DNA of 64,000 nt, from positions 1 through 64,000 of the forward strand of contig JAFKEN010000005.1 of assembly GCA_017308515.1 (NCBI GenBank), given 5' to 3'. The position numbers and the translations under genes are program-made. Positions 4,487 to 50,322 of this stretch are shown here, in pieces (positions within the stretch are counted from its first letter, which is position 1; each line of letters starts with the position of its first letter). The DNA comes from Actinomycetales bacterium (GTDB lineage Bacteria; Actinomycetota; Actinomycetes; Actinomycetales; Microbacteriaceae). The notes under the pieces are model-generated. The model saw nothing but the letters and a program-made list of their open reading frames with translations, was not told the DNA's origin and searched no databases.

Positions 4487-4535
4487 GCTGACGTTCTGAG
4501 CGGCCGATCGAACCCGGTCGGCGTACGCTGACCGG

Positions 4536-5078: not shown

Positions 5079-5172
5079 CGGCCCCGGCCCCGGCACCGGC
5101 ACCGGAGTCCGGTCGGCGCCCGAGCCGAGACGACCCACGGGACCATCGGCCTTGCGCGGGCCCTCGTCACGG

Positions 5173-5187
5173 GTCAACACTGTTGAC
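5173..5187. promoter_or_regulatory. Operator-like palindrome GTCAAC-act-GTTGAC
   Basis: Perfect 6+3+6 inverted repeat, with the right arm overlapping a consensus -35 hexamer TTGACA (5184-5189), 41 nt before the SDR start. A repressor bound here would block RNA polymerase. The TetR protein encoded immediately upstream is the obvious candidate; this is inference from position. Confidence 0.5.
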
Positions 5188-5227
5188 ACGCCCGCAGGGT
5201 GCGGGTCTCGAAGGAGAGGAATCCGCC

Positions 5228-6034: not shown

Positions 6035-6061
6035 ATCGGCCGCCGGCGCCGGTCCGCAGGC

Positions 6062-6973: not shown

Positions 6974-7007
6974 GAACGCGTCCTCCCGTCGCCGCCCGTG
7001 TCGGAGG

Positions 7008-7997
7008 TCAGCGCTTCGGGCCGGCCGAGGCGTTCGACTCGTATGAGGTGTTCGTCGACTCGAAGAAGTTGACGAGCTGGAGGGTGTCGTTCGCCGTCGC
7101 CATCCACTTCGCCGGGTTCGACACCTTGTACTCCGGCTCGAAGCCGAGCTCCTCGAGGCGCCGGTCGGCGAGGTACTTCACGTACTGGTTGATGTAGGTC
7201 GCGTTGAGGCCCAGGATGCCGCCGGGGAGCAGGTCGTGGTTGTACTGCTCCTCCATCTCGACCGCGTCGAGGATCATCTGCTTGATCTCGGCGGCGAACT
7301 CCGGCGTCTGCAGGTCGGGGTTCTCGTCGAGCACCGTGAGGATCAGGTTGATGCCGAACTTGAGGTGCAGGCTCTCGTCGCGCACGATCCAGTCGACGAG
7401 GGAGCCGAAGTTGCGCAGCAGGTTCCGCTGGCGGAAGCTCAGCGCCACCATGAAGCCCGAGTAGAACCAGATCCCCTCGAGGATGATGTTGTACGCGACG
7501 AGGTTGCGGATGAAGTCCTTCTTGCCCTCGGTCGTCGTGATGTCGAGCTGCTGCTCAGTCATCCGCTTGATGAACCTGACCTCGAACTCCTCCTTGCGCG
7601 CCATCGAGGGCACGTCGACGTGGGAGTTGTAGGCCGCGTCGCGATCGATCGGGAAGGTCTCGAGCACGTACTCGAAGCTCATGCAGTGGTTGGCCTCCTC
7701 CCACATCTGCTTCGCGAGGTAGAGGTGCGCCTCGGGAGCGTTGATGTAGGGGTAGACGCCGAAGGCGAGGGCCTTGTTGACGAGCAGCTCGTTCGGGTTG
7801 AAGTAGCTGATGAGGAACGTCACGGCGTGACGCTCCTCGTCGGTCATCTTCTTGAAGTCCGCGAGGTCTTCGCCGAGCTGGATCTCGTTGGGGAACCAGG
7901 TGTTGGCCACGGCCTGGTCGTACAGCTCCATCGCCCACTTGTAGGTGACGGGCTTGAGCAGCAGGCCTTCGGAGACGCCGGTGCCGAGGATGGACAT
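7008..7997 (-). CDS. nrdB: Ribonucleotide reductase beta subunit, class Ic type (Mn/Fe, Phe for Tyr)
   Basis: 329-residue radical-generating small subunit. The metal ligands are present as Glu70, Glu101, His104, Glu174, Glu208 and His211. The position of the E. coli tyrosyl radical (Tyr122) is Phe108 (EANHCMSFEY), and the first ligand is Glu70 rather than Asp84. Ligand spacing matches both the E. coli (31, 3, 4, 82, 34, 3) and Chlamydia trachomatis patterns. Glu-for-Asp plus Phe-for-Tyr is the hallmark of class Ic subunits, which use a Mn(IV)/Fe(III) cofactor instead of a tyrosyl radical. It is downstream of nrdA in the same orientation. No nrdI gene is present nearby, consistent with a cofactor that does not need it. 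Confidence 0.9.
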   Translation of the reverse strand: MSILGTGVSEGLLLKPVTYKWAMELYDQAVANTWFPNEIQLGEDLADFKKMTDEERHAVTFLISYFNPNELLVNKALAFGVYPYINAPEAHLYLAKQMWEEANHCMSFEYVLETFPIDRDAAYNSHVDVPSMARKEEFEVRFIKRMTEQQLDITTTEGKKDFIRNLVAYNIILEGIWFYSGFMVALSFRQRNLLRNFGSLVDWIVRDESLHLKFGINLILTVLDENPDLQTPEFAAEIKQMILDAVEMEEQYNHDLLPGGILGLNATYINQYVKYLADRRLEELGFEPEYKVSNPAKWMATANDTLQLVNFFESTNTSYESNASAGPKR

Positions 7998-8082
7998 GTC
8001 GGTGACTTTCTTCTTGCGAGGTGTCGGATCCGGCCGGTCCCAGGGCGGCTGACCGGCGCGAATCGACGCCTCAAGGTGGGTT

Positions 8083-8187
8083 CTACTGGCAGCTCTCGCA
8101 CTGCAGATCGTCCATCGGGTCGACGGGCACGTCGTACCCGCCGATGGTGGAGATCGCGGGGGCGGCCGATCCGGGGAGGGAGTTCAT
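8083..8187 (-). pseudogene. nrdA': Out-of-frame C-terminal tail of NrdA (CxxC motif)
   Basis: A 34-residue frame beginning MNSLPGSAAPAISTIGGYDV and ending DPMDDLQCESCQ. The terminal Cys-Glu-Ser-Cys is the redox shuttle normally found at the very end of class I NrdA, where it re-reduces the active site. It lies in a different frame from the 829-residue NrdA, starting 8 nt after that protein's stop. Removing one G from the GGG run at 8201-8203 (CCC on the plus strand) would fuse the two as ...GFGGCETAMNSLPG.... So this is either a real frameshift, a sequencing error, a recoding site or a separately translated tail. Confidence 0.7.
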
Positions 8188-8194
8188 CGCGGTC

Positions 8195-10684
8195 TCACAG
8201 CCCGCCGAAGCCGCGCCGCGCGGGCGAGGCGATCGGCGAGGAGGTCTCGGCGGGGGCCTCGGTCGCGCCGGCCGGGGCGGCGCCCGCGGCGCCGAAGCCG
8301 CGCTTGGCCCCGGTCGCGGCCTGGCCCTGGTCGATCGACTCGGCCTTGTTGACGCGCACCGTCGACTGCTCGGCGGTGTGACGCGGCTTCATGTGCAGGT
8401 AGTACGTCGTCTTGACGCCGCGCTCCCAGGCCCCGTAGTAGATGTCCATCATGTCGCCGAGGTCGCGCGTCTCGAGGTACATGTTGCGGCTGATCGACTG
8501 GTCGATCCACTTCTGGGCGCGGGCCGCGACGTCGAGGAAGGCGTAGGGCGAGAGCTGGAAGCTCGTCTTGTAGACCGCCTTGATCGCGTCGGGGATCTCG
8601 GCGATCCCCTGGATGTCGCCCTGCGAGCGCAGGATCTGCTCCTTCGTCGCCTCCCACACGCCCGCGTCGCGCAGCGCCTGCACGAGGTTGCGGTTGACCT
8701 CGAGGAACTTGCCGTTGCTCGTGGCCCGGCTGAAGATCTGCGAGAACTGCGGGTCGAGACCGGGCGTGGTGCCGGCGACGAGCCCGATGGATGCCGTCGG
8801 CGCGATCGCCATGAGCGTCGCGTTGCGCATGCCGCCCTTCACCTTCGCGCGCAGCGCGTCCCAGTCGAGCCGGGTCGTGCGCGAGACCTTGATCGGCACG
8901 CCGCGGTCCTTCTCGGTGAGCTCGATCGAGTCGAAGGGCACGAGACCCTGCGACCAGCGCGAGCCCTCGAAGTTGTCGTAGCTGCCGCGCTCGCGGGCGA
9001 GGTCGGCCGACTCGTCGATCGCGGCGTAGGAGACGTGCTCCATGATCTCGTCCATGAGCTCGGCGGCCTCCTCGCTCTCGTAGGAGAGGCCGAGCTTCTC
9101 GACGACGTCGGTGAAGCCCATGACGCCCAGGCCGATCGCGCGGTTGGTGGTGTTGGCGTGATCCGCCTCGGGCACCGAGCTGACCGTGATGTCGATGAGG
9201 TTGTCGAGCTGGCGCACGGCGCTGCGGGCGCTCGCCTCGATGAGGTCCCAGTCAAAGCCGAGGCCGCCGTTCTCGTCGACCCGGAGGTGGGTCGAGAGGT
9301 TGATCGAGGCGAGGTTGCAGACCGCGATGTTCTCGAGGTCCTGCGGGAGGCAGATCTCGGTGCAGAGGTTGGAGAGGTGGATCGTGCCCGTGTTGTTGTT
9401 GAGGGCGCGGTTGTTGATCGTGTCCTTCCAGGTGAGCCACGGGTGGCTCGTGGTCTGCAGGGAGATGAGGATCGACTTGAACTGCTCGCGCGCGCCGATC
9501 TTCTTGAACATCGCGATGCGACCGGCCTCGGCCTCCGCGACGTAGTGCGCGTAGCGCTCGGAGAACTCCTGACCGTAGAGCTCGTTGAGGTCGCTCACCT
9601 CGAGCGGGTCGAAGAGGTACCAGTCGTCGTCGTTCTGCACGCGCTTCATGAACTCGTCGCTGATCCAGACCGCGGTGTTCGCGGTGCGGGTGCGGCGGTA
9701 GGGGTCGCCCGAGTTCTGGCGCAGGTCGAGGAACTCGGGGAAGTCGAGGTGCCAGTTCTCCATGTAGAAGCACAGCGCGCCGAACTTCTTGCCGCCGCGG
9801 CTGACCGCGCGCAGCACCGAGTCGACGGTGTGCATGAAGGGGATCGGGCCGGTGCTCGTCGTGTTGTTGCTGCGGATCGGCGAGCCCTGGGCGCGCAGCT
9901 TGGTGACCGAGAGGCCGATGCCGCCGGTGCCCTTCGTGAGCCACATGACGTCGCGCACGCTCTTGGCGATGTGCTCGATGTCGTCGTGCATCTCCATGAC
10001 GAAGCAGTTGGAGAGCTGCGGGTAGGCGGTTCCCGCGTTGACGAGCGTCGAGCCGGCGGCGAGGTACTCGAGCTTCGACATCTTCTCGTAGAAGCCGAGC
10101 GCGACCGAGGTGGGGTCGGCCTCGTTGAGCGAGAGGCCCATCGCGATGCGCATCCAGAAGTACTGCGGCACCTCGAGCGGCTCGCCGTTGCGGGCGCGGA
10201 TGCCGTAGCGGTTGTGCAGGGTCACGACGCCGATGTACTTGAGCAGCTCGTCGCGGCTCGGGTCGAGGGCGGCGGCGAGCCGGTCGAGGTCGAACAGCTG
10301 GGTGAAGCGGGAGTCGAACAGCCCCTCCGCGACGCCGCGCTCGACGCGCGCGCGGAAGTGCTCGGTGTGCAGGGCCGGCAGCTGCGCCGGGTCGTCGTAG
10401 TCGCCCAGCACGCGCTTGTAGATGGTCTTCAGCAGCAGGCGGGCGGCGACGGTGTCGAACTGCGGGTCGTCCTTGACGTTCTGCAGCGCGACCTGGATCA
10501 CCGCCTCGTCGAGCTGCTGGGTGGTGATGCCGTCGAACAGGGTGAGCTCGAGCTCGCTCGCGATCTGGGTGACCCAGGTGATGTTCTCGTCGAGGCCGCG
10601 GCTCGCGTGCTCGATCGCCAGGTTGATCTTGTTGGCGTCGTAGCTCTCGCGCTCGCCGTTGCGCTTCACGACCGTGATCGACAC
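8195..10684 (-). CDS. nrdA: Ribonucleotide reductase alpha subunit, apparently frameshifted at the C-terminus
   Basis: 829 residues of the catalytic large subunit that converts NDPs to dNDPs. An N-terminal ATP-cone (about 1-90, starting MSITVVKRNGERESYD) indicates allosteric control of overall activity. The core includes QLSNCFVMEM, NLCTEICLP and CNLASINLS, with the catalytic cysteines. The protein ends ...RRGFGGL without the CxxC tail expected for the family; that tail lies just downstream, one base out of frame. The 5' region carries two NrdR-like boxes and DnaA-box-like sites. nrdB follows on the same strand. Confidence 0.92.
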   Translation of the reverse strand: MSITVVKRNGERESYDANKINLAIEHASRGLDENITWVTQIASELELTLFDGITTQQLDEAVIQVALQNVKDDPQFDTVAARLLLKTIYKRVLGDYDDPAQLPALHTEHFRARVERGVAEGLFDSRFTQLFDLDRLAAALDPSRDELLKYIGVVTLHNRYGIRARNGEPLEVPQYFWMRIAMGLSLNEADPTSVALGFYEKMSKLEYLAAGSTLVNAGTAYPQLSNCFVMEMHDDIEHIAKSVRDVMWLTKGTGGIGLSVTKLRAQGSPIRSNNTTSTGPIPFMHTVDSVLRAVSRGGKKFGALCFYMENWHLDFPEFLDLRQNSGDPYRRTRTANTAVWISDEFMKRVQNDDDWYLFDPLEVSDLNELYGQEFSERYAHYVAEAEAGRIAMFKKIGAREQFKSILISLQTTSHPWLTWKDTINNRALNNNTGTIHLSNLCTEICLPQDLENIAVCNLASINLSTHLRVDENGGLGFDWDLIEASARSAVRQLDNLIDITVSSVPEADHANTTNRAIGLGVMGFTDVVEKLGLSYESEEAAELMDEIMEHVSYAAIDESADLARERGSYDNFEGSRWSQGLVPFDSIELTEKDRGVPIKVSRTTRLDWDALRAKVKGGMRNATLMAIAPTASIGLVAGTTPGLDPQFSQIFSRATSNGKFLEVNRNLVQALRDAGVWEATKEQILRSQGDIQGIAEIPDAIKAVYKTSFQLSPYAFLDVAARAQKWIDQSISRNMYLETRDLGDMMDIYYGAWERGVKTTYYLHMKPRHTAEQSTVRVNKAESIDQGQAATGAKRGFGAAGAAPAGATEAPAETSSPIASPARRGFGGL

Positions 10685-16517: not shown

Positions 16518-17293
16518 AGCGGCGTGACGTAGGCCGAGCTGATGCCGCCGTCGACGAGGAAGGTGGAGGCCGTGATGAAGCTCGCGTCGTCGCTCGCGAG
16601 GAAGGCGACGGCGGCCGCGAGCTCCTCCGGCTCGGCGAAGCGGCCGACCGGCACGTGCACGAGCCGCCGGGCGGCGCGCTCCGGGTCTTTCGCGAACAGC
16701 TCCTTCAGCAGCGGGGTGTTGACCGGGCCCGGGCACAGCGCGTTGACCCGGATCCCCTGGCGTGCGAACTGCACGCCGAGCTCGCGCGTCATCGCGAGCA
16801 CCCCGCCCTTACTGGCGGTGTAGGAGATCTGCGAGGTCGCCGATCCGAGCACCGCGACGAAGCTCGCCGTGTTGATGATCGAGCCCTTCCCCGCGGGCAC
16901 CATGTGGCGCAGCGCGGCGCGCGAGCACAGGTAGACGCTCGTGAGGTTGACGCGCTGCACGCGATCCCACGCGTCGAGCTCGGTCGTCTCGATCGAGTCG
17001 TCGTCGGCGGGCGAGATGCCGGCGTTGTTGAAGGCGATGTCAACGGATCCGAACTCGGCCGCCGCGGTGTCGAAGAGCTGATCGACCGTCTCCTTGTCGC
17101 CGACGTCGACCGGCACGAACAGGCCCCCCACCTCGTCGGCGGCGACGCGCCCGGTCGTCGGGTCGAGGTCGCCGATCACGACTCTCGCCCCCTCGGCGGC
17201 GAAGCGCCGCGCGGTCGCGAGGCCGATGCCGCTCGCGCCGCCGGTGATGACGGCGACGCGGTCGGCGAGGCGGCGGGTGAGGTCGACGGTCAT
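16514..17293 (-). CDS. SDR family oxidoreductase
   Basis: 259-residue classical SDR: TGGASGIG coenzyme motif (about 17-24), NNAG, catalytic Ser of NTASF and YxxxK in SYTASKGG, then the PGPVNTPLL loop. Probably NAD(P)-dependent. Fourth gene of the amine-utilisation operon, after the aldehyde dehydrogenase with 56 nt between. The substrate is inferred to be an alcohol or aldehyde intermediate; this is not provable from sequence. Confidence 0.85.
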   Translation of the reverse strand: MTVDLTRRLADRVAVITGGASGIGLATARRFAAEGARVVIGDLDPTTGRVAADEVGGLFVPVDVGDKETVDQLFDTAAAEFGSVDIAFNNAGISPADDDSIETTELDAWDRVQRVNLTSVYLCSRAALRHMVPAGKGSIINTASFVAVLGSATSQISYTASKGGVLAMTRELGVQFARQGIRVNALCPGPVNTPLLKELFAKDPERAARRLVHVPVGRFAEPEELAAAVAFLASDDASFITASTFLVDGGISSAYVTPL

Positions 17294-17349
17294 GGTGCTC
17301 CTGGTTCGGGGTGATGGTCGGTGGCGGTCTCGACGAGCTCGGCCGGCGG

Positions 17350-18711
17350 TCAGTCCTGGGCGAAGAAGACGTTCTTGGTCTCGGTGAAGTGCAGCGGCGC
17401 GTCGGGCCCGAGCTCGCGCCCGAGACCCGAGGCCTTCATGCCGCCGAACGGGGTCGTGTAGCGCACCGAGGAGTTCGAGTTGACCGAGAGCGTGCCGCTG
17501 CGCACGCCTCGGGCGACGCGGATGCCACGGCCGAGGTCGCGGGTCCAGATCGACCCCGACAGCCCGTACTCGCTCGCGTTGGCGAGGGCGACCGCGTCCG
17601 CCTCGTCGTCGAAGGGCAGCACGCTCACCACGGGACCGAAGATCTCGTCGATCGCCACCCGGTCGCCGCGCTCGGGCAGCAGCACGGTCGGGGCGAACCA
17701 GAAGCCGGGCCCCTCCGGCGCGGTGCCGCGGAACGCGATGCGGGCCGAGTCGTCGAGGAAGGCCGCGACGCTCTCCCGGTGCGCGGCCGAGACGAGCGGC
17801 CCCATCTCGGTCGCCTCGTCGCGCGGGTCGCCGACCCGGAAGGCGGCGACCGCGGGCTCGAGCAGCTCGAGGAACCGGTCGAGCACCGAACGCTCGACGA
17901 GCAGCCGGCTGCGGGCGCAGCAGTCCTGCCCGGCGTTGTCGAACACCGCGCCGGGTGCCGCGGCGGCGGCCTTCTCGAGGTCGGCGTCGGCGAAGACGAT
18001 GTTGGCGCTCTTGCCGCCGAGCTCGAGCGTGACCGGCTTGAGCCCGCGCGCGGCCCCCTCGGCGACGCGGACGCCCGTCGCGGTCGAGCCGGTGAAGACG
18101 ATCTTCCCGACGCCGGGATGGGTCACCATCCGGTCGCCGACGACCGAGCCGCGGCCGGTGATCACCTGGAACAGGTGCTCGGGCAGGCCCCCCTCGAGGG
18201 CGAGCTCGCCGAGCCGGAGCGCGGTGAGCGGCGTCCAGTCGGCCGGCTTGAGGATCACCGCGTTGCCCGCCGCGAGCGCGGGCGCGAACCCCCACGAGGC
18301 GATCGTCATCGGGAAGTTCCACGGCACGATGACCCCGACGACGCCGATCGGCTCGTGGAAGGTCACGGCGATCCCGCCCGCAACCGGGGTCTGCGCGCCG
18401 AGCAGCCGCTCGGGCGCGCCGGCGTAGTAGTTCAGCACGTCGCGCACATGCCCCGCTTCCCAGCGGGCCGAGCCGATCGGATGCCCCGAGTTGCGCACCT
18501 CGAGCTGGGCGAGCTCCTCGACGTGCGCGTCCACGACCACCGCGAAGCGGCGCAGCGCGGCCGCGCGCTCGGCGGGTGCGAGGGCGGCCCATCCGCGCTG
18601 AGCGGTCTCGGCGCGCGCGACCGCGGCGTCGACGTCGTCCGCGGAGGCGTGCGGCACCTCGCCGATGACGGTCTCGTCGGCCGGGTTCACGAGCGTCGTC
18701 GACCCGGTCAC
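17350..18711 (-). CDS. NAD(P)-dependent aldehyde dehydrogenase
   Basis: 453 residues of the aldehyde dehydrogenase superfamily. PWNFPM, FTGSTATG (coenzyme loop), LELGGKSANIV (general base Glu) and NAGQDCCA (catalytic Cys) are all present, as are IFGPVVSV and the C-terminal PFGGMKASGLGRE. The GTG start at 18711 overlaps the upstream stop (GTGA). In a gamma-glutamyl amine pathway it would oxidise the gamma-glutamyl aldehyde to the acid before the amidotransferase-type hydrolase frees the product. Confidence 0.9.
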   Translation of the reverse strand: MTGSTTLVNPADETVIGEVPHASADDVDAAVARAETAQRGWAALAPAERAAALRRFAVVVDAHVEELAQLEVRNSGHPIGSARWEAGHVRDVLNYYAGAPERLLGAQTPVAGGIAVTFHEPIGVVGVIVPWNFPMTIASWGFAPALAAGNAVILKPADWTPLTALRLGELALEGGLPEHLFQVITGRGSVVGDRMVTHPGVGKIVFTGSTATGVRVAEGAARGLKPVTLELGGKSANIVFADADLEKAAAAAPGAVFDNAGQDCCARSRLLVERSVLDRFLELLEPAVAAFRVGDPRDEATEMGPLVSAAHRESVAAFLDDSARIAFRGTAPEGPGFWFAPTVLLPERGDRVAIDEIFGPVVSVLPFDDEADAVALANASEYGLSGSIWTRDLGRGIRVARGVRSGTLSVNSNSSVRYTTPFGGMKASGLGRELGPDAPLHFTETKNVFFAQD

Positions 18712-41177: not shown

Positions 41178-42644
41178 ATGAGCGACGCCACCGTGAAGCC
41201 CTACGAGCTGCGCCCGGTGAAGTTCTCGCGTCTCGCGCGCCGCGGCGTGCTGATGGGCCTGACGACGCCGCAGCTCATCGCGCTCGGGATAGCGATCCTC
41301 ACCGCCGTCGTTACCCTGTACGAATGGGGCTTCGACGCTTTGCCCTGGTCGGCGCCGATCTGGCTCCCCGCCGCGCTTATCGGACTGCTGCGGTTCGCCG
41401 GCCGCTCGGCCGCGGAGTGGGTGCCGATCCTCGCGAACTGGGCGATCCGCCGTGCCACCGGGCAGACCGTCTACCGGGTGAAGCTCTCCAAGCCCCGCCC
41501 CGCGGGGACGCTCGCGCTCCCGGGGGATGCGGCGTCGCTTCGGCAGTACGAGGACCCGGAGACTGGGGCGTGCTTCATCCACGACCCGCATGAGCTGACG
41601 CTCACCGCGGTCCTGTCGGTCGGGCAGCCAGATCCCGCGTTCGTGCTCCTCGACCCGATCGAGCAGGAGCGCCGCGTCGCCGCCTGGGGTCGCGCGCTCT
41701 CGACGGTCTGCCGCTCGGGCCGGATCAAGCATCTCCAGGTCCTCGAGCGCACCCTCCCGGATGCGGGCACCGGGCTCGCGGATTGGTGGCAGCGGCACGG
41801 ACGTCAGGACGGGTCCTGGGTGTCGCGCACCTACGCCGACCTTGTGCACCGCGCCGGCCCCGCCGGGGAACGGCACGTCACCACGATCTCGATCTCCCTG
41901 GACATGAAAGCCGCCGCTCGCGCGATCCGCACCTCTGGCGGCGGACTGCGCGGTGCGGCCGCGGTGCTCCGGCAGGAGATGACGACGTTTGACGGTGCCC
42001 TTCGCACCGCGGAGCTGCGCCCCGAGAAGTGGCTCGATGCGGCCGAGGTCGCGGTCATGCTTCGCATCGCCTACGACCCCGCGGTCTCCGCCACCTTGGA
42101 GCGGGCGAAGACCCTCGGCCGCGACCTCAGCACCGCCGGTCCGGTCGCGGTCGAGGAGCGATGGGCGACGATTCATACTGACTCGGCCTGGCATGCGGTG
42201 CTGTGGATCAGCCAGTGGCCGCAGTCGCTCGTCTACCCCGGCTTCCTCGCCCCGGTGCTGCTGACCGGCGGGATGCGCCGCGCATTCACGATCCTCTACC
42301 GGCCTGTCCGCCACGACGAGGCGGCGAGAGACATCCGCAAGAAGAAGGTCGAGCACCTCTCTGACGCGGCGCAGCGGGCGAAGATCGGGCAGATCGACGA
42401 CATCACCCACAAGGCCGAATACGACGACGTCCTGCAGCAGGAGTCCGAGCTCGCCTCCGGTCACGGGGTGCTGCGCCACGTCGGCCTCATCGCGATCTCC
42501 GCCGCGACCGAGGACGAGCTCGAGGCGGCAGTCGCGAAGATCGAGCAGGCCGCCGTGCAGGCGTCCCTGGAGACGAGGCGGCTGGTCGCCCAGCAGGCGC
42601 AGGCGTTCGCGGTTGCCGCCCTGCCGTTGGCGAGGCCGGCATGA
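41178..42644 (+). CDS. SCO6880/PrgI-like type IV secretion protein
   Basis: 488 residues. Two N-terminal hydrophobic helices (about 32-47 and 56-69) as in PrgI-type proteins, then a large soluble domain with HDPHELTLTAVLSV, WQRHG and a region resembling the VirB4 N-terminal domain. This matches the SCO6880-family protein found beside VirB4 in actinobacterial elements. Its stop overlaps the VirB4 start (ATGA), so the two likely form one functional ATPase unit. Confidence 0.75.
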   Translation: MSDATVKPYELRPVKFSRLARRGVLMGLTTPQLIALGIAILTAVVTLYEWGFDALPWSAPIWLPAALIGLLRFAGRSAAEWVPILANWAIRRATGQTVYRVKLSKPRPAGTLALPGDAASLRQYEDPETGACFIHDPHELTLTAVLSVGQPDPAFVLLDPIEQERRVAAWGRALSTVCRSGRIKHLQVLERTLPDAGTGLADWWQRHGRQDGSWVSRTYADLVHRAGPAGERHVTTISISLDMKAAARAIRTSGGGLRGAAAVLRQEMTTFDGALRTAELRPEKWLDAAEVAVMLRIAYDPAVSATLERAKTLGRDLSTAGPVAVEERWATIHTDSAWHAVLWISQWPQSLVYPGFLAPVLLTGGMRRAFTILYRPVRHDEAARDIRKKKVEHLSDAAQRAKIGQIDDITHKAEYDDVLQQESELASGHGVLRHVGLIAISAATEDELEAAVAKIEQAAVQASLETRRLVAQQAQAFAVAALPLARPA

Positions 42645-44140
42645 GCGACAAGAAGCTGCACGCCGCGGCCCTCGTCACCCCCGCGAAGGAGAAGCGCCGA
42701 GACCGGAAGGCCCGCGAGGCCGCCACCCGGCGCCGCTACGCCGACGAGGCCGCCGCGAAGAAGGCGGAAATCCAGGCCCGCTATGACGCCGAGCGCGCTG
42801 AGGCCCGCGACGCGGGCTACCTGCCGCGCGACGGCCAGCCCGGCCCCGCATCACTCCGGCAGTACCGGCGGCTGCACATCCCCTCTCACCAGGACACCTC
42901 GGCGACGTTGCAGGGCGCGTACCCGTTCCTGTCCGGCGGCGGGCTCGGCGCCGAAGGCGTGTTCGTCGGCCAGGACCTCTACTCCGGTTCCTCGTTCGTC
43001 TACGACCCGTGGGAGCTGTACCGTCGCGGCGTCATCACCGCCCCGAATGTGGTGCTGGCCGGGATCGTCGGCTCCGGGAAGTCGTCGCTGGCGAAGTCGC
43101 TCTACTGCCGCTCCATCGCCTTCGGTCGCCGCGTCTACATCCCCTGCGACCCCAAAGGCGAGCACGCGAAGATCGCCGAGCAGATCGGCGGCAAAGCCAT
43201 CAGCCTCGGCCACGGCCTCTCCGCCCGCCTCAACCCGCTCGACGAAGGCCACCGACCCAGCGGGATCTCCGAGATCGACTGGAAGGCGCAGGTCGCCTCC
43301 CGCCGCCGCGACCTGATCGGCGCGCTCGCCGAGACGATGCTCACCCGGCCGCTGTCCCCGGTCGAGCACACCGCCGTCGACGTCGCCCTCCGCGCCGTCG
43401 TGTCCGAAGCCGAAGTGCCGGTCCTCCCGCTCGTCGTCGACCGGCTCCTCTCCCCAGGCCCGGATGCGGACGAGCGGCTCGAGGAGGACGGCCGTCACGT
43501 CGGCCACGCCCTCCGTCGCCTCGTCGCCGGTGACCTCGCCGGGCTCTTCGACGGACCGAGCACCGTCCGCTTCGACCCGTCTCTGCCGATGCTCGCCCTC
43601 GACCTGTCCCGCGTCGCGGAGAACAACGCGCTGATGTCGGTGCTCATGACCTGTGCCTCGGCGTGGATGGAGTCCGCGCTCCTCGACCCCGCCGGCGGAC
43701 AACGCTGGGTCGTCTATGACGAAGCCTGGCGCCTCATGTCCCACCCTGCGCTGCTCAAGCGCATGGACGCGCACTGGCGCCTCGCGCGCCACCTCGGCAT
43801 CGCGAACCTGCTCATCTTCCACAAGCTGACCGACCTCGACAACGTGGGCGACCAAGGCACTCAGCAGCGCGCCCTCGCCTCCTCCCTCCTGGCGAATGCC
43901 GAGACGCGGATCATCTACCGACAGGAATCCGACCAGCTCGGCATCACCGCGCAGATGCTCGGACTCACGGGCACCGAGCGGAAGCTGCTGCCGAGCCTCG
44001 GCACCGGCCAGGGTCTCTGGAAGGTCAAGGAGATGTCCTTCCTCGTCCAGGCCCAGCTGCACCCGGAGGAACTCACCGCCTTCGACACGACCTCCCGGAT
44101 GGTCACGGAACCCCGTAAGTTCACGAATCGTGAACCCTGA
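42641..44140 (+). CDS. VirB4-like conjugal transfer ATPase
   Basis: 499 residues. Walker A GIVGSGKSS (141-149) and Walker B VVYDEAWRLM, plus a FASP-like later region LLANAETRIIYRQES with the arginine finger expected of HerA/VirB4 ATPases. It powers pilus assembly and DNA export. The last residues, KFTNREP, are encoded by the repeat at 44120-44135 that bounds the nested cassette; before insertion, the frame would have run on from REL at 48850 and ended at 48903, so the natural C-terminus may be altered. Confidence 0.85.
   Translation: MSDKKLHAAALVTPAKEKRRDRKAREAATRRRYADEAAAKKAEIQARYDAERAEARDAGYLPRDGQPGPASLRQYRRLHIPSHQDTSATLQGAYPFLSGGGLGAEGVFVGQDLYSGSSFVYDPWELYRRGVITAPNVVLAGIVGSGKSSLAKSLYCRSIAFGRRVYIPCDPKGEHAKIAEQIGGKAISLGHGLSARLNPLDEGHRPSGISEIDWKAQVASRRRDLIGALAETMLTRPLSPVEHTAVDVALRAVVSEAEVPVLPLVVDRLLSPGPDADERLEEDGRHVGHALRRLVAGDLAGLFDGPSTVRFDPSLPMLALDLSRVAENNALMSVLMTCASAWMESALLDPAGGQRWVVYDEAWRLMSHPALLKRMDAHWRLARHLGIANLLIFHKLTDLDNVGDQGTQQRALASSLLANAETRIIYRQESDQLGITAQMLGLTGTERKLLPSLGTGQGLWKVKEMSFLVQAQLHPEELTAFDTTSRMVTEPRKFTNREP
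44120..44135. repeat. Left direct repeat / presumed attachment site of the cassette
   Basis: TTCACGAATCGTGAAC, identical to 48835-48850. Together with G44119 it is a perfect 17-bp palindrome centred on one A. It encodes the end of VirB4 (FTNRE), so the site lies in a conserved coding sequence, as is common for recombinase targets. Confidence 0.75.
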
Positions 44141-44147
44141 AACGGTG

Positions 44148-44198
44148 GGAACTCACGGGCTCAGCAACGGTTTCAGCGTATCTGGACCCGTGAGTTCC
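44148..44198 (-). terminator. 12-bp inverted repeat after the CDF exporter gene
   Basis: GGAACTCACGGG (44148-44159) is the exact reverse complement of 44187-44198, with a 27-nt spacer. It lies just after the exporter stop on the minus strand and just inside the left end of the cassette. It may be the operon terminator or a recombinase/end-binding site. Confidence 0.55.
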
Positions 44199-44202
44199 TG
44201 GC

Positions 44203-45260
<1,058 letters not shown>

Positions 45261-45264
<4 letters not shown>

Positions 45265-45641
45265 GCCTCGTCCGTCCTGTGGTGGTGTCGAGGAGTGCCG
45301 CCCAGGGAGTGCTCGGCCTGGAAGATCGCGTCCGAGACGAGTTGGGAGGCGTGCTCGTTCTCTAACCGGTAGAAGACCCGTTGCCCTTCCTGCCGGGTCG
45401 CGACGATCCGCGCCAGCCTCAGCTTCGCAAGATGCTGCGAGACCGCAGCCGGGGACTTGTCGACCGTCTCGGCGAGCTGGTTGACCGAGAGCTCCGCAGC
45501 CCCTCGCAGCGCGAGGATGATCCGCACCCGGGTCGCATCAGCAAGCATCGCGAAGACCTCAACCGCGAGCTCGACAAACTGACTGTCCGGGCTAAGTCCG
45601 CATACTTGCTTATCTGCATCCACGCGCAGATTATTGCACAT
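45261..45641 (-). CDS. ArsR/SmtB-family metal-sensing repressor
   Basis: 126 residues: winged helix with MLADATRVRIILALR, LSVNQLAETVDKSPAAVSQHLAKLR and a wing TRQEGQRVFYRL. The C-terminal His cluster (HASQL, AEHSLGG, TPRHHHRTDEA) resembles the alpha-5 metal site of SmtB/NmtR-type zinc, nickel or cobalt sensors; Cys2 and Cys14 may add ligands. The start region overlaps the upstream recombinase gene by 11 nt, and an imperfect repeat TAATCTGC/GCAGATAA around 45603-45627 falls inside it; a GTG 18 nt downstream is an alternative start. Confidence 0.85.
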
Positions 45642-47376
45642 CCTGTTGGGTCTCGAGGTCGTGGTCGAGGACGCGGCGGTAGCGGGCGGCGGCGTCGACG
45701 CTGATGCCGAAGAGGTCGGCGATGTGGCGGGTGTCGCCGCCGGTGGCTTGGATCTCTTGGATGATTCGGTCGTTGCGGAGGGCTTGGGCGGAGATCCCGG
45801 CCTTGTGCCAGGGAAACTGGTGTCCGGGCGGGCTGAGGCGTCCTGCGGTGAGCATGCTGACGAACAGGTGCGGGTTGAGGGTCCGCGGCCAGGTCGTCGC
45901 CCGCTGGTCGAGCCAGACGGCCAGGCGGGCCCGGACGGGTTCCGCGAGCGGGATCACCCGCCCGTCGGGAAGGGTGAGTCTGCCATCGACGATGTCGGTG
46001 AGTTGGATCTCGCGGACCTGGCCGCTGGTGAGGCCGTGGAACGCGACGATCGAGGTCGCGAGGGCGATGGCCGGGTCTTCGTGGTTCAGGACGGCGAGAA
46101 TCGTGTCGGTGTCGATCGGGAGCGGGATGCTCTCTCCGGAGTCGGTGAGAGGGATGCCCCGGGTGGGGTCGGCGAAGATGAGCTTGCGACCCTTGAGAAT
46201 ACTGAACAGGGTGCGGAATCCGCGCTCGGCCCAGTGTCGTTTTCCGCGCTCGGCGGGGAGGGCGTCGAGGATCATGTCCGTGGTGATCTCGGCGAGAGAG
46301 TGATGGCCGGCCGCCGCCCAGTCGGTGATGATCGGCGCGATGCCGAGGATCTGAATCTTCACCGTGGCGGGGTCGCGGGGTTTGCGTCGGGGCGGGGTGC
46401 GGCTGCCGTGGATCATGATGTCGAACCAGAGCTCGAGCTGGGTGCGCATCGTGGCGGGGAGGCTTGCGAACTTCCCGTCGAAGTAGCGGTCGATCGTCGG
46501 CACCCGGTCATCGATGAGGATGCCTGCAGCGTCGAGGACGTCGAGGGTGGAGACGACGTTCGCGTCGGCATCGTGGCGGCGAAGGCGGAGGACTTCGCTG
46601 GCTCTGATCGTGTTCGCGGCGGGGTTGAGGATCTGGAGCATCTTCAACGAGCGGCGGACCTGGTTCGTTTGCCGTTTCGACCAGCCAAAGCGTTCGGCAT
46701 GCTCGAACACGATCGTGTCAGTGCGGTAGGTCCAGTCGCGGGCCTGCTCGGCCGCCAAACGCCGCAGCACCTCGGGGTCGGGATCGACATCGAACAGGGC
46801 GGGCTGTTCGTAAGCGGCGGCCGCAGCCGCGGCGGCTTCGGCGTCAAGGATGATGCGGGAGGCGCGCAAGAGCTGCTTGGGCTGTTTCGGTTTGCGGGGT
46901 GCGGGGAGGTTCGCGAAGAAGAGTTGCTGGCCGGCGGTGAGCACGTCGTCGAGGTTCGGGGCGGTGCCCGCGGGGGCGACGCGGCGGGCGGATTCGAGGC
47001 AGAGGCGGCAGGCTCCCGTCTCTCCGATCGGGACGTGGCGGCCGCACCAGGCGCAGTCTCCGACCGGGTAGTGGCCTTGCCACCAGCGGCATTGCCAGCA
47101 TCGCCAGTTGTGGCGACGGTAGACGCCCCAGGCCAGGCAGTCTTTGCAGGCGCCGAGGTATTCCGGGCTGCCGGGATGGCATCTCTCGCAGAGTCCCTGG
47201 CTGAAATACGCCATCGACCCGCATCGTGAGCACGGTGGCGGGGCGAACGGTCCGCCAGGGAGGCAGGCGTAGCAGTAGTCGACGCGGGGCCGCACCCAGG
47301 CCACTCGGGCGACGCCGCAGCCGGTGCATTTCTCCGGTGGGCGCAACCTCGCAGTGGGGCCGGGCGCGGGGCTCAT
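45631..47376 (-). CDS. Degenerate tyrosine recombinase with eight N-terminal CxxC knuckles
   Basis: 581 residues. CxxC pairs occur at 17/20, 35/38, 49/52, 63/66, 77/80, 93/96, 108/111 and 123/126, spaced about 15 residues, enough for four zinc sites. The C-terminal third has the tyrosine-recombinase outline (FHGLTSGQVREIQLTDI; QALRNDR; DLFGISVDAAARYRRVL), but the first Arg is Thr, the HxxR His is Gln531 and the later His is Ile558; Arg534 and Tyr566 remain. It is likely catalytically inactive alone and may be a DNA-binding partner of the intact recombinase. Overlaps the XRE gene by 4 nt and arsR by 11 nt. Confidence 0.7.
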   Translation of the reverse strand: MSPAPGPTARLRPPEKCTGCGVARVAWVRPRVDYCYACLPGGPFAPPPCSRCGSMAYFSQGLCERCHPGSPEYLGACKDCLAWGVYRRHNWRCWQCRWWQGHYPVGDCAWCGRHVPIGETGACRLCLESARRVAPAGTAPNLDDVLTAGQQLFFANLPAPRKPKQPKQLLRASRIILDAEAAAAAAAAYEQPALFDVDPDPEVLRRLAAEQARDWTYRTDTIVFEHAERFGWSKRQTNQVRRSLKMLQILNPAANTIRASEVLRLRRHDADANVVSTLDVLDAAGILIDDRVPTIDRYFDGKFASLPATMRTQLELWFDIMIHGSRTPPRRKPRDPATVKIQILGIAPIITDWAAAGHHSLAEITTDMILDALPAERGKRHWAERGFRTLFSILKGRKLIFADPTRGIPLTDSGESIPLPIDTDTILAVLNHEDPAIALATSIVAFHGLTSGQVREIQLTDIVDGRLTLPDGRVIPLAEPVRARLAVWLDQRATTWPRTLNPHLFVSMLTAGRLSPPGHQFPWHKAGISAQALRNDRIIQEIQATGGDTRHIADLFGISVDAAARYRRVLDHDLETQQDVQ

Positions 47377-47699
47377 AGCGGTGGCTCTGGCCGGTTCCCG
47401 TTGAAGCGGGGCCGCACGATCGAAGGCGACCCGTTACTGGTCTGCTCCTCGATCTCGGCCTGGGGTTTGCGTGCGGCAGCGGCGGCAAGGTCCGCGGTCA
47501 GCAGATCACCGGGTGTGCAGTCCAGTACCGCGCAGATCACGTCGAGGTCATCCAGGCGCAGTGTGGTCGGGGTCGTCGTCCAGAGCTTCGACATCTTGCC
47601 GACGCTGATCTCCAGCCCGGCGTCGGCGAGCATCCGCCGCAGTTCCGAGGACTTCCAGATGCCGCGCTCGGCGGCGGCCATCCGTAGGTTCCATTTCAT
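47373..47699 (-). CDS. Small XRE-type HTH protein in recombinase module
   Basis: 108 residues. The HTH (about 1-70) reads MKWNLRMAAAERGIWKSSEL, then LEISVGKMSKLWTTTPTTLRLDDLDVICAVLDCTPGDLL, typical of Cro/XRE proteins of mobile elements. A Lys/Glu/Pro-rich tail follows. The start ATG at 47699 is 4 nt after the recombinase stop, and its own end overlaps the next start (ATGA). It is probably a regulator or directionality factor of the recombinases. Confidence 0.75.
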   Translation of the reverse strand: MKWNLRMAAAERGIWKSSELRRMLADAGLEISVGKMSKLWTTTPTTLRLDDLDVICAVLDCTPGDLLTADLAAAAARKPQAEIEEQTSNGSPSIVRPRFNGNRPEPPL

Positions 47700-47703
47700 G
47701 GGT

Positions 47704-48783
47704 TCACGCCCTCCCTCCGAATCGGGTCTCCAGACGCCGGTTCGCGTTGAGCCATGCCTGTTCGACGTGGTCGCTGGAGACGTGAATGTACCGGGTCGTC
47801 GTGGAGAGCCACTCGTGTCCGAGGACCTCCTGGATCGCTTTGAGGTCCATGCCCGCCCCATAAAGCGACGACGCGCAGTAGTGCCGCAGAACGTGCGGGG
47901 TCATCCGGCCCACCCATGCCGGGAGGAACACCGCCGTCTGTGCTTTCAGGCCCTGCCGCAGCACGTCGTCGCTGGCCCGCTGGCAGCGGTGCAACTCGGC
48001 GTCGAACCGTTCCGAGGGGATCATCGGCGCATCCGGGTCTTCCCAGTCCGGGCCGAACAGATGGCGCACCTCAGCGAGCCACCAATCGATCAGGCGGTCC
48101 GTGCCGTTGATCGCCGGAACCAGCCGCGGCTTCGCACCGCGACCACGAGACCCCTTCCCGAACCGGACATGCAGCTTCCCGAACTCACCCAGGTCCGGCC
48201 GCCAATCGCGGATGTCGAGCTTCGCTGACTCGCTGATCCGCAACCCCAGCCTGCGCCAGAGCGATGCGGCGAAGTAGTCGCGGGCTGCGGGCAGGAATTT
48301 CCTCGCGCTCGACAGTGAACTCCGCCAGCCCGCGAACAGCACCTCCACCTCAGCATCCGACGGAGGCACCCGAACCCGGCCCAACGAGTTGCCCGACTGC
48401 CGGTTGAACTCGTCGATCGGCTGCTCCAGCACGAACCCCGTCAACGCATGAACGTCCGCCTGATACCGAGTGATCGCGAAGTCGTAGAACTGGGCCAGCG
48501 CACCCGCTTTCCCCGCCCGAGTGCTCACCGCTCGACCCGCGCGACGCAGCCCCGACAAGAACCGGTCAGCGTCACCCGGTCCAGCCGTCCACAACGGTTC
48601 CACCAGGATCTGCCGGAACTCGAACACCGTCGCTCGCGCCGCGAGGATATGCGCGTCCGTCAGCCCCGCAGCCGCCATCGCCAGCGCGTACTGATCGACG
48701 ATCTCCTGCTCGAAGTCCGCCGCGTCCTGCTCGTCACGGAGCCCACGCGCGGTGCCGATGCTCCGCACTGCAGCGAGTCTCAT
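47704..48783 (-). CDS. Tyrosine recombinase/integrase of the cassette
   Basis: 359 residues with a complete catalytic set: Arg182 (LGLRISES), a Lys near 210, His297 and Arg300 (TPHVLRHYCAS), His323 (LGHEWLSTTT) and nucleophile Tyr332 (TRYIHV). The N-terminal half is a SAM-like core-binding domain. The start lies about 50 nt from the right direct repeat, the usual position of an integrase beside its attachment site. It begins a five-gene minus-strand run ending in the zinc exporter. Confidence 0.88.
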   Translation of the reverse strand: MRLAAVRSIGTARGLRDEQDAADFEQEIVDQYALAMAAAGLTDAHILAARATVFEFRQILVEPLWTAGPGDADRFLSGLRRAGRAVSTRAGKAGALAQFYDFAITRYQADVHALTGFVLEQPIDEFNRQSGNSLGRVRVPPSDAEVEVLFAGWRSSLSSARKFLPAARDYFAASLWRRLGLRISESAKLDIRDWRPDLGEFGKLHVRFGKGSRGRGAKPRLVPAINGTDRLIDWWLAEVRHLFGPDWEDPDAPMIPSERFDAELHRCQRASDDVLRQGLKAQTAVFLPAWVGRMTPHVLRHYCASSLYGAGMDLKAIQEVLGHEWLSTTTRYIHVSSDHVEQAWLNANRRLETRFGGRA

Positions 48784-48933
48784 GACCCCGCCAGTTCACG
48801 AACATCACCCATGCATCAACAATACGTCGCTTCTTTCACGAATCGTGAACTTTTTTGTGAATCTATGCAAGCGGTGGGAGCCCAGCGCACCTCTCAACTA
48901 TGAGAGATCAACGCGTGATGCCCGTGCGCAAAC
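48784..48933. other. Right end of cassette: attachment region and promoter
   Basis: 150 nt. It contains the right direct repeat (48835-48850), extra half-copies of the same arm (GTTCACGAAC at 48794-48803 and GTGAATC at 48857-48863) and, outside, a CTCTCA/TGAGAG hairpin (48891-48906). The repeated half-arms look like recombinase binding sites. The promoter of the recombinase operon must lie here, reading leftward. Confidence 0.5.
48835..48850. repeat. Right direct repeat / presumed attachment site of the cassette
   Basis: TTCACGAATCGTGAAC, identical to 44120-44135 and in the same orientation, 4715 bp away. It is followed by a T-run and another GTGAA half-site. Confidence 0.75.
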
Positions 48934-49764
48934 TCACGGCAGTTGGGACACCGGGGTGAGCGCTCCGGGGTCATCGTCGTCGGGCCGAGCGTGACCATCC
49001 GTCAGGTGAAAGGCATCTTTGATTCGCTCGCTGCGGATCGGCATGTACACACCATCGACGACTGCGCCGCCGCCAAACATCTGCATGAACTGTGCTGATG
49101 CACGCTCGTTCAGGATCGAGGGATTCGCTTCGATCATCCGGTTGATCCGATCGGTCACCTCCGGAGACGCGAGCTGTTCCATTGCCCGTTGAAGCTCAGC
49201 AAGTTCTCGCTGATCTTCCAGTCGCGCATTCGACAGGATCTGGCGCTGCTCCGCAATGAAGGCCGAGGCGGCCAGCATGGCCAAGAGGCGCTGCTGCGCC
49301 TCTTCGGTGCTCATGCTGGCGCGGTTGTCGTCGATCGCTGACTCGATTGCCTTCGACACATCAGCTGGCTCAGCCTCCGCGAGCTCGGTGAGCGCGAGGG
49401 TGGGCGAAAGCCTCGCAGAAGGCTCAAAGGTGGACTTCTTCTTGAAGAGCCGCTTGATCCCAGGCCAAGCCGTGTCGAGCCACCATGCCTTGACGTGAGG
49501 CGCGGCGGCGATGGCGATGGCAACCAGTGCCGCAGCGATCAGTTCTCCGAGCTCCTCGGCGCGGCGGCGATCCTCATCACTCAGGCCCGACGGCTCGTAG
49601 TCCTGTTCATCGCTGTAGTCCGATTCGTCGTCCGGAATGAAGGTTGCGTGCCCCTTCACATGGCCGCCCGCGGGGTCATACAGGTTCTGGCTGAGTCCGC
49701 CGTCAGCCCGCTGCCCAGGGGTGAAGTCGTCGTCGTAGACGTACTTGCCCCGAATCTCCGCCAT
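48934..49764 (-). CDS. Hypothetical protein with one membrane helix
   Basis: 276 residues, not recognised. Acidic, probably disordered N-terminus (DDESDYSDEQDYEPSGLSDE), one hydrophobic helix (LIAAALVAIAIAAAPHVKAWW at about 72-92), then a basic stretch KRLFKKKS and a helical C-terminal part with LAMLAASAFIAEQRQILSNA. ATG at 49764. It is the only minus-strand gene of the conjugative element outside the cassette and is divergent from the gene at 49825. It could be an accessory or surface-exclusion factor; this is a guess. Confidence 0.55.
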   Translation of the reverse strand: MAEIRGKYVYDDDFTPGQRADGGLSQNLYDPAGGHVKGHATFIPDDESDYSDEQDYEPSGLSDEDRRRAEELGELIAAALVAIAIAAAPHVKAWWLDTAWPGIKRLFKKKSTFEPSARLSPTLALTELAEAEPADVSKAIESAIDDNRASMSTEEAQQRLLAMLAASAFIAEQRQILSNARLEDQRELAELQRAMEQLASPEVTDRINRMIEANPSILNERASAQFMQMFGGGAVVDGVYMPIRSERIKDAFHLTDGHARPDDDDPGALTPVSQLP

Positions 49765-49824
49765 GCCCAACAACAGTACAGAGAGGCACCGACGCGCACG
49801 GGCGCAGAACCACACCTGACTGCC

Positions 49825-50322
49825 ATGAACCGTCACGCGCGCCCATCCGGCAGTCCGATCAAGGCATTCGTCACGGTCGTGATCCGCGGCGAGGCCGATG
49901 TGGAGATTCGCGTCGATGGACGCCTCTACATCGCCGGCCCGATCAGCCGCAGCGCCGTGCCCGGGATGGTGAAGGCAATCTGCGAGGAGCTGCAGACGCA
50001 CCTCGACGTCGTCGTCACTGAGACCGACGGCTCACAGGCCAGCTTCGAGGTGTTCTACCGGCGTGAGTCACGGTTCGCTCCACCAGCGGAGGAAGTTCCG
50101 ACTCCGCCACCACCGCGGGCGATCTCACCGTTCGTGATCACGGCGGATGGATTCATCCCCGGCGAAGACGTGGACGTCGCAGTCGTCTTCAGGAGCGGCT
50201 CGGTCGACGGTGACGGCGTGGCTCGTGGGCTCATCGATCCACGTCAGCTCGGGGACGGAGTCCGAGCGGTGATCCTCTTCGGGAACGTCTCCGGCACCGT
50301 GCACCGGGAGTCGATCGAATGA
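49825..50322 (+). CDS. Hypothetical protein coupled to the conjugation ATPase
   Basis: 165 residues, not recognised. The first half is a small beta-rich domain (VTVVIRGEADVEIRVDGRLY), a Pro-rich linker follows (PTPPPPRAISP), and the second half contains VEDVDVAVVF-like beta segments (GEDVDVAVVFRSGS). The start ATG at 49825 gives the compact domain. It overlaps the coupling-protein gene by 4 nt (ATGA), which ties it to conjugation. Its equivalents sit before TraG/VirD4 genes in related elements (inference). Confidence 0.6.
   Translation: MNRHARPSGSPIKAFVTVVIRGEADVEIRVDGRLYIAGPISRSAVPGMVKAICEELQTHLDVVVTETDGSQASFEVFYRRESRFAPPAEEVPTPPPPRAISPFVITADGFIPGEDVDVAVVFRSGSVDGDGVARGLIDPRQLGDGVRAVILFGNVSGTVHRESIE

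What the first reader, a model, noticed from the sequence alone, without database searches (positions are those of the whole stretch)
44120..48850. A tyrosine-recombinase trio drives or carries a zinc-efflux operon as one unit
Seen: five minus-strand genes (active tyrosine recombinase, XRE protein, degenerate recombinase, ArsR, CDF exporter) are chained by overlaps or a 4-nt gap and enclosed by identical 16-bp repeats at the end of virB4. Known: Tn554-like and RIT elements use several recombinases, and metal cassettes are common on mobile DNA. Inferred: recombinase and metal-resistance genes share one transcript, so metal-dependent expression may also affect mobility. I know of no described family with this arrangement.
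Basis: partly seen in the sequence, partly recalled or inferred. Interest (0 to 1): 0.85.

Follow-up and report, generated by a model that had tools for sequence, protein, structure and literature searches.

The report
Recombinase-trio mobile element carrying metal efflux
A small DNA element that looks mobile, built on a recombinase gene trio found across actinobacteria but little studied, sits in the end of a conjugation gene and carries a metal-efflux pair as one of several interchangeable cargoes.

Summary
The genes and the 16-bp repeat are real. The unit is an integrative element of about 4.84 kb (window 44108-48950): tyrosine recombinase, XRE protein, Cys-rich protein with a degenerate recombinase domain, plus ArsR-CDF cargo. 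The trio has one order and strand in 75 of 79 related loci (4 unscored). A Leucobacter copy is 94% identical from 48950 to 24 nt before the third gene's stop, then differs. Two related elements have zero-gap empty sites in trio-free relatives.

AACTYACGG occurs four times in 64 kb, all within 90 bp of a terminus. The ArsR "overlap" is probably a start-codon artefact: ArsR has its own operator, shared with nine trio-free ArsR-CDF loci. Zinc-coupled mobility is unsupported.

The kind is in print: "XER modules" of Arthrobacter plasmids (PMC6305408), and probably some Tn554-related actinobacterial transposons (PMC3414803). Added here: ends, virB4 targeting, cargo exchange, tandem arrays, a trio-less derivative, and absence of the third protein's first catalytic Arg in this clade (0 of 46; two distant relatives keep it). 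All evidence is comparative.

The parts
44108..48950 (-). whole integrative element (about 4.84 kb); ends to within a few nt
   Evidence: int-side end: L098 94.4% identical over W 48950-45655, terminal motif in 64 of 69 loci; virB4-side end: point where near-identical elements in different virB4 genes diverge; empty sites of relatives L107 and L110
47704..48783 (-). tyrosine recombinase P0001, full catalytic set
   Evidence: PF00589 E=1e-16; catalytic residues invariant in 18 sequences
47373..47699 (-). Cro/C1-type HTH (XRE) protein P0002
   Evidence: PF13443 E=1.2e-15; 17-sequence alignment
45631..47376 (-). third protein P0003: Cys-rich N-terminus plus degenerate tyrosine-recombinase fold; first catalytic Arg absent, second Arg and Tyr invariant
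   Evidence: (position 450: Arg in 0 of 46; R534 and Y566 in 46 of 46)
45261..45623 (-). cargo: ArsR/SmtB regulator P0004, likely true start GTG 45623 (ORF called to 45641)
   Evidence: NF033788 E=2.3e-25; start codon position and operator shared with nine loci
45612..45635 (-). inverted repeat ATCTGC-N8-GCAGAT (45612-45631) with AATAAT (45630-45635): candidate ArsR operator/promoter
   Evidence: inverted repeat exact in 7 of 9 trio-free ArsR-CDF loci, the other two with 1 and 2 mismatches; read by eye
44203..45264 (-). cargo: CDF metal exporter P0005 (zinc inferred from HxxxD motifs in two helices, recalled rule)
   Evidence: TIGR01297 E=4.1e-68, PF01545 E=4.7e-43
44120..44135 (+). 16-bp repeat copy, 12 bp inside the virB4-side terminus; encodes last residues of the present virB4 ORF
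48835..48850 (+). 16-bp repeat copy upstream of the recombinase, 100 bp inside the int-side terminus
44113..44121 (-). terminal arm AACTTACGG, virB4 side
   Evidence: AACTYACGG: 4 matches in 64 kb, all within 90 bp of a terminus; shuffles mean 0.32, largest 2
48931..48939 (+). terminal arm AACTCACGG, recombinase side (inverted relative to the other end)
   Evidence: same arm in L098
44148..44198 (.). subterminal inverted pair with AACTCACGG on both arms (44150 +, 44188 -)
   Evidence: inverted repeat I13
42641..44140 (+). host gene virB4; its last codons (from about 44108) come from the element end
   Evidence: several trio-free virB4 homologues end earlier, e.g. L061, L067, L083; G041 locus L061 is 97% identical in protein without element

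Best explanation
A site-specific integrative element of the XER-module kind. P0001 is the catalytic tyrosine recombinase. P0003, a Cys-rich protein with a recombinase fold that lacks the first catalytic arginine, is a non-catalytic or half-catalytic partner that helps bind the ends or choose the target. P0002 is a small DNA-binding regulator or directionality factor that may also control the trio's promoter. They act on inverted terminal arms (AACTYACGG in this copy) and on the nearby 15-bp palindromes. The element leaves as a circle, by excision or by copying out, and inserts at the junction between the end of virB4 and the next gene of conjugation operons, the trio running against that operon. 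Cargo sits between the third gene and the virB4-side end and is exchanged between elements; here it is ArsR plus a CDF exporter, probably expressed at least partly from ArsR's own operator. Shown by comparison: ends, empty sites of two relatives, target, cargo exchange, tandem arrays, a trio-less derivative, near-identical copies in different genera. Inferred: each protein's role, the circle, zinc as the metal, present activity of this copy.
For: Trio in one order and on one strand in 75 of 79 loci; the other 4 lacked a scored partner hit. 94.4% identity to L098 over W 48950-45655 only, different sequence beyond. Elements 99.5-99.6% identical over about 9.76 kb in three genera, with different flanks. 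Zero-gap empty sites: L107 and L110 against L087 and L088. Terminal motif in 64 of 69 loci; 200 simple shuffles mean 2.5, maximum 8 (pattern chosen after viewing). AACTYACGG 4 times in 64 kb, all within 90 bp of a terminus. Palindrome (up to 3 mismatches) at both ends, int end only, left end only, neither: 17, 6, 2, 25; Fisher p=1.3e-6 (loci are related). virB4 on the opposite strand beyond the third gene in 53 of 79 loci. Two trios in tandem in one locus; a left-end-like flank beside the int end in 10 of 64. L191: both ends and 5.7 kb of cargo 91% identical to L101, no trio. P0003 residues 304-581 align to XerH 5jjv, Z 16.4, rmsd 3.1, 261 residues.
Against: No movement has been observed. The closest relative of this backbone (G041) diverges too much at the junction for a base-exact empty site of this very copy. 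L098's other end was not found in its fetched stretch, so its cargo limits are unknown. Five of 69 loci lack the terminal motif; 44 of 69 have no int-side palindrome within 2 mismatches. Some virB4 genes in genomes without a P0003 match still carry an end-like tail (L065, L070, L072, L075, L080, L082): decayed or trio-less copies for some, but L065 and L070 could be natural target sequence. About 880 bp (48951-49830) beyond the int end are unexplained. Which protein binds the palindrome is unknown. Two distant relatives of P0003 keep the first Arg (L011, L012), so its loss is not general.
Confidence: 0.85

Rival explanations
1. One reading: recombinase trio and zinc genes are one metal-responsive transcript, so zinc controls mobility.
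For: Five ORFs on one strand, close or overlapping; ArsR-CDF follows a trio again in a distant element, L171.
Against: ArsR-CDF is downstream, so its promoter cannot drive the trio; its operator at the likely start is shared with nine trio-free loci. L098, 94% identical in the trio, shows no ArsR or CDF hit in the 5.1 kb held beyond the third gene. Among 79 loci only L171 has a CDF hit. The palindrome upstream of the recombinase occurs in elements without ArsR-CDF. The consensus scan found no sigma-70-like promoter anywhere in the unit, so it decides nothing.
Confidence: 0.06
2. The trio is a resident part of the conjugation operon (for example a plasmid resolution or regulatory module), not a mobile element.
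For: virB4 on the opposite strand beyond the third gene in 53 of 79 loci; several copies carry no cargo.
Against: In the same sample 64 of 398 genomes have virB4 (E up to 1e-60) but 17 of 398 a P0003 match, four of these fragments only; zero-gap empty sites; near-identical copies in different genera; copies beside Tad genes; two trios in tandem; three different elements at one shared flank, L112, L115/L116 and L145.
Confidence: 0.06
3. The 16-bp repeats are the recombination (att) sites and a smaller 4.7-kb unit between them moves.
For: Exact 16-bp direct repeat, chance negligible.
Against: Homology to L098 runs 100 bp past the right copy and stops at 48950; the left copy is absent from trio-free virB4 ends such as L061, L067, L083 (but see L065 and L070); relatives have unlike copies at the two ends, for example L112.
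Confidence: 0.04

Closest known systems
XER modules of Antarctic Arthrobacter plasmids pA2H2, pA8H1, pA40H2 (PMC6305408; section 19 and found passages read)
   Same: Same gene order (tyrosine recombinase, XRE regulator, second recombinase) and variable passenger genes including a metal resistance module; pA8H1 proteins are homologous to the window's: recombinase 32% over 169 residues E=2.7e-16, XRE 29% E=2.8e-12, third protein E=6.7e-6 in the Cys-rich part
   Different: Third protein 828 aa rather than 581; inserted between umuC and umuD rather than after virB4; ends not given in the passages read; no BLAST match between the C-terminal parts of the third proteins
Tn554-related actinobacterial transposons, Famint36/41 pairs (PMC3414803; section 10 and found passages read)
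   Same: Short plus long recombinase pair, mostly on actinobacterial plasmids; its Table 2 lists pNOCA01, whose single P0001 match (E up to 0.001) is a trio of this kind
   Different: No third partner listed for this pair, though an XRE gene lies between them on pNOCA01; long partners of 611-828 aa; that the listed pair is this trio is inferred; the pNOCA01 third protein keeps the first Arg
GInts (PMC5385486; found passages read)
   Same: Recombinase operon at one end, cargo starting at the stop of the last operon gene, variable cargo, GinC lacking the first Arg
   Different: Four genes ginABCD with two further recombinases; no protein comparison made here
[quoted passage not shown] abstract and found passages read)
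   Same: Catalytic recombinases plus a non-catalytic recombinase-fold protein and a small protein; few specific targets; imperfect inverted repeats at the joined ends
   Different: Four genes intA-tfp-intB-srap, two of them full recombinases; found in Gammaproteobacteria; strand bias not testable here
RIT elements (PMC3414803 and PMC10214605; found passages read)
   Same: Three short-overlapping genes
   Different: Three recombinases, all with catalytic Tyr, 315-410 aa in the archetype, 34-bp terminal inverted repeats

Membership tests
XER module (PMC6305408) | core of tyrosine recombinase, XRE regulator and second recombinase-like protein in this order | tested here: met
XER module (PMC6305408) | variable passenger genes with a constant core | tested here: met
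XER module (PMC6305408) | insertion between umuC and umuD, as in the published three (a site, not necessarily a definition) | tested here: not met
   here the end of virB4
Tn554-like transposon | two recombinases with the RHRY set | tested here: not met
   P0003 position of the first Arg is Thr, Met or Ser in 46 of 46 aligned
Tn554-like transposon | TnpC homologue | tested here: inconclusive
   P0002 matches only HTH_26 above its cut-off; no direct comparison with TnpC was made
RIT element | three tyrosine recombinases of ordinary size | tested here: not met
   second gene is a 108-aa HTH protein
GInt | four-gene ginABCD operon | tested here: not met
   three genes; what follows changes between elements
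SE | intA-tfp-intB-srap | tested here: not met
   three genes, one full recombinase
SE | strand-biased circularization without empty site | not testable with these tools
   needs bench work
Gamma-mobile-trio | GmtY above its NCBIfam cut-off | tested here: not met
   14.7 bits against cut-off 340
Integrative element in general | occupied and empty sites in relatives | tested here: met
   L107 and L110 against L087 and L088, gap 0; not base-exact for the window copy

The most novel reading that the evidence does not exclude
A distinct class of site-specific actinobacterial transposon in which one catalytic recombinase works with an obligatory, catalytically broken, Cys-rich recombinase partner and an HTH protein; it moves by copying out rather than cutting out, specialises in the virB4 end of conjugation operons as a docking site, builds arrays of differently loaded copies there, and so serves as an integron-like loading bay for cargo on conjugative elements, with trio-less copies mobilised in trans.
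Probability: 0.22. Interest if true: 0.68.

Novelty: new variant of a known kind. Interest (0 to 1): 0.45.

Why it matters
In the papers seen, the kind was noticed without ends or mechanism. The comparison here gives termini, candidate recombinase arms, a target (the virB4 end) and occupied/empty pairs, so circle and empty-site PCR can be designed at once. It shows one way in which metal, arsenic, chromate and other genes are loaded onto actinobacterial conjugative elements, and it offers a three-gene case for asking why several mobile elements keep a recombinase that has lost a catalytic arginine.

Tried and rejected
Considered and dropped: the 16-bp repeat as att site; metal control of mobility; RIT, GInt, SE and gamma-mobile-trio membership (and gene content); resident conjugation module. 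In 12 plasmid relatives the 15-bp core (up to 3 mismatches) did not flank the trio on both sides; L002 has a near copy on the int side only and L011 and L012 one distant copy each upstream. The promoter scan found none (shuffles 0.5) and one terminator-like hit, the palindrome itself (shuffles 1.6); neither was used. Profile search of PDB sequences gave one hit at E=0.6. The next-ORF spacing was too crude to judge co-transcription with cargo. Gaps to virB4 are upper bounds, because alignments of 25-55% identity stop short of the gene end; the 400-1500 nt bin therefore holds some cargo-free copies. L120 was dropped from alignment A4 for an internal stop; L120, L152, L159 and L174 had no scored partner. 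A4 holds 46 sequences: the window's and 45 chosen from the 79 loci. Cargo was scanned for only 19 proteins picked by hand (plus one window ORF): examples, not a census.

Papers: searches turned up PMC5385486, PMC10214605, PMC6305408 and PMC3414803; 'XER module' gave three papers, the other two on Acinetobacter (listing only); searches added none that I read; PMC8138268 was read in passages only and says nothing of this trio there. Absence elsewhere in print is not claimed.
Full report
What is there. Five minus-strand ORFs lie between virB4 and the next genes of a conjugation locus. P0001 (359 aa) is a complete tyrosine recombinase. P0002 (108 aa) is a Cro/C1-type HTH protein. P0003 (581 aa) has no usable family match. 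P0004 is an ArsR/SmtB regulator and P0005 a CDF exporter. The 16-bp repeat is exact; its 15-bp core occurs exactly only at its two places in the window and in the whole genome, with two further places at one mismatch.

What the third protein is. In 20 sequences the N-terminus holds 16 invariant cysteines (14 in the wider set of 46), and R534, D536, R537 and Y566 are invariant in both sets. The position of the first catalytic arginine is Thr, Met or Ser in 46 of 46; in the 20-sequence set 18 lack Arg, while the two most distant rows, pNOCA01 (L011) and S. coelicoflavus (L012), keep it. The AlphaFold2 model (mean pLDDT 79, pTM 0.40) aligns from residue 304 to 581 with XerH 5jjv at Z 16.4, rmsd 3.1, 261 residues; XerA, Tn1549, integron, lambda and Cre recombinases follow. 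That the cysteines bind zinc is inferred from their pattern.

Where the ends are. Four lines agree. First, Leucobacter sp. wl10 (L098) is 94.4% identical from window 48950 to 45655 and gives no other match to the window at E up to 1e-10; this is the trio, to 24 nt before its last stop, plus the 167 bp upstream of the recombinase. Second, elements 99.5-99.6% identical over about 9.76 kb in three genera (L044, L046, L048; a length cut by the fetched stretches) diverge just after ...AATAGAGACA on that side. Third, a block of the form [AG]TCTCTA and near variants lies at that place in 64 of 69 loci against a shuffled mean of 2.5 and maximum of 8 (the pattern was chosen after viewing; misses L126, L146, L166, L168, L173). 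Fourth, on the other side elements in different virB4 genes become alike at GAAACCC or GAACCC, which puts the window's end near 44108. AACTYACGG is found four times in the 64-kb window: at both termini, in inverted orientation, and in a subterminal inverted pair.

Empty sites. L107 (Intrasporangium) and L110 have left and right flanks that lie side by side with no gap in L087 and L088, from genomes without a P0003 match. L110's flanks are 91.9% and 95.7% identical to L087. The junction reads GCAGGA/GGCCACCGATG in the empty L088 locus and is split by the element in L110: eight bases before an ATG that overlaps the native virB4 stop. For the window itself the nearest trio-free operon (G041) has a virB4 97% identical in protein, but its junction is too divergent for a base-exact comparison; it also lacks the 880 bp at 48951-49830.

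The repeat. The window's palindrome is one of a family, TTCASGAWTCSTGAA (consensus drawn from these sequences). Within two mismatches it is present on the recombinase side in 25 of 69 loci (0.1 per set in simple shuffles) and on the virB4 side in 15 of 54 (no shuffles made there). Within three mismatches it is at both ends in 17, at the int end only in 6, at the left end only in 2 and at neither in 25 of 50 loci; the loci are related, so the p-value of 1.3e-6 is too small. It lies upstream of the recombinase, so it could be an operator as well as a recombination site; which protein binds is unknown. In relatives with other cargo, such as L102, it occurs without mismatch at both ends.

Cargo. 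Of 79 loci from named genomes (the best 80 of 130 were kept, 79 distinct), 53 have virB4 on the opposite strand beyond the third gene; the measured gap is below 400 nt in 15, 400-1500 in 16 and larger in 22. Among the 19 proteins scanned between trio and virB4, or in L098 beyond the trio, are P-type ATPases (L098, L163), MFS transporters (L104, L105), a dihydrodipicolinate-synthetase family protein (L105), an iron-dependent-repressor-type regulator with a Na/Ca exchanger family protein (L107), thioredoxin, a pyridine-nucleotide-disulphide oxidoreductase, an SBF transporter, a LMWPc-family protein and a sulfate permease (L112), a chromate transporter (L114), an aldo-keto reductase (L129) and ArsR plus CDF (L171). 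L098's virB4-side end was not found in its fetched stretch, so its ATPase is cargo by position only. Only L171 of the 79 has a CDF hit. ArsR-CDF is common elsewhere: 68 of 299 family genomes have a CDF homologue at E up to 1e-80, and nine loci examined hold ArsR beside it, with no P0003 hit within about 1.5 kb.

Is mobility coupled to zinc? DNA identity between the window's ArsR-CDF and these nine loci reaches 45631-45641 in seven of nine and stops there. At that place the nine share ATCTGC-N8-GCAGAT (seven exact, two with one and two mismatches) and an ATG or GTG at the position of window GTG 45623, while the ORF's upstream start is ATG in only one of the nine (read by eye). This places the likely start at 45623, with an operator on top of it and the third gene's stop at 45631, so the two genes would not overlap. 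L171's copy of the operator is weak. ArsR-CDF can thus answer to metal by itself, and since it lies downstream its promoter cannot drive the trio. Readthrough from the trio is possible and untested.

Signs of movement. P0003 matches occur in 17 of 398 family genomes (four with fragments only), virB4 in 64 of 398 (only the top candidates per genome are scored). L043/L109, one locus seen twice, holds two trios in tandem. In 10 of the 64 loci with a recognised terminus the DNA just outside looks like another element's virB4-side end (regular-expression count). L112, L115/L116 and L145 show three different elements beside one shared flank. L191 keeps both ends and 5.7 kb of cargo 91% identical to L101 but has no trio. 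The own genome has another virB4 whose contig stops about 150 bp into an end of the L102 type. Against this, some virB4 genes in genomes without a P0003 match keep an end-like tail (L065, L070, L072, L075, L080, L082); L080 is the trio-less element, L072 has a recombinase fragment, L075 ends at a contig edge, L065 and L070 are unexplained.

What is known. PMC6305408 (section 19 and passages read) named XER modules: recombinase, XRE protein and second recombinase with 4 or 14 passenger genes, between umuC and umuD. In pA8H1 all three proteins are homologous to the window's, the third by its Cys-rich part only. PMC3414803 (section 10 and passages read) defined Tn554-related actinobacterial transposons and lists pNOCA01, whose single P0001 match is a trio of this kind and has no XER-type third protein at E up to 0.001; that their pair is this trio is an inference. 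GInts (PMC5385486, passages) and SEs (PMC10214605, abstract and passages) are mechanistic parallels: both keep a recombinase-fold protein without the full catalytic set, and both need all their core genes. The element works like these but is not a member by gene content.

Judgement. An integrative element of a known but barely characterised kind, in a clade with its own target and ends. The boldest reading not excluded is a copy-out transposon with a non-catalytic partner that uses conjugation operons as a docking site for exchangeable cargo.

Noticed in passing
L191 (G093:C22), about 2084-10465: Element with both termini and the L101-type cargo but no trio hit: a probable non-autonomous derivative.
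   Followed up: partly
G000:C8:9992-10127 (L091): Another virB4 of the same genome ends with an L102-type element end, and the contig stops there; the rest of that element was not found in the assembly.
   Followed up: partly
window 48937-49830: Minus-strand ORF (298 codons read, no Pfam match, no homologue among fetched loci other than copies of the window) between the element end and the next conjugation gene; its last codons lie inside the element.
   Followed up: partly
L187 (G215:C15), about 6133-7181: Fragment of a CDF about 90% identical to P0005 near a third-gene remnant: a decayed element or array.
   Followed up: no
L011 and L012: Two trios sit beside Tad pilus genes instead of virB4; their third proteins keep the first catalytic Arg.
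   Followed up: no
L065, L070 (G322, G053): virB4 genes in genomes without a P0003 match that keep a TTCACGAATCGTGA tail before the next gene: possible footprints of lost elements or natural target sequence.
   Followed up: no
L097 (G207:C12), 2766 onward: A virB4-side end almost identical to the window's, with no trio hit in the next 13 kb.
   Followed up: partly
L059 (pA8H1), 16740-18238: The large XER module has a second recombinase and HTH pair in the opposite orientation near its far end.
   Followed up: no
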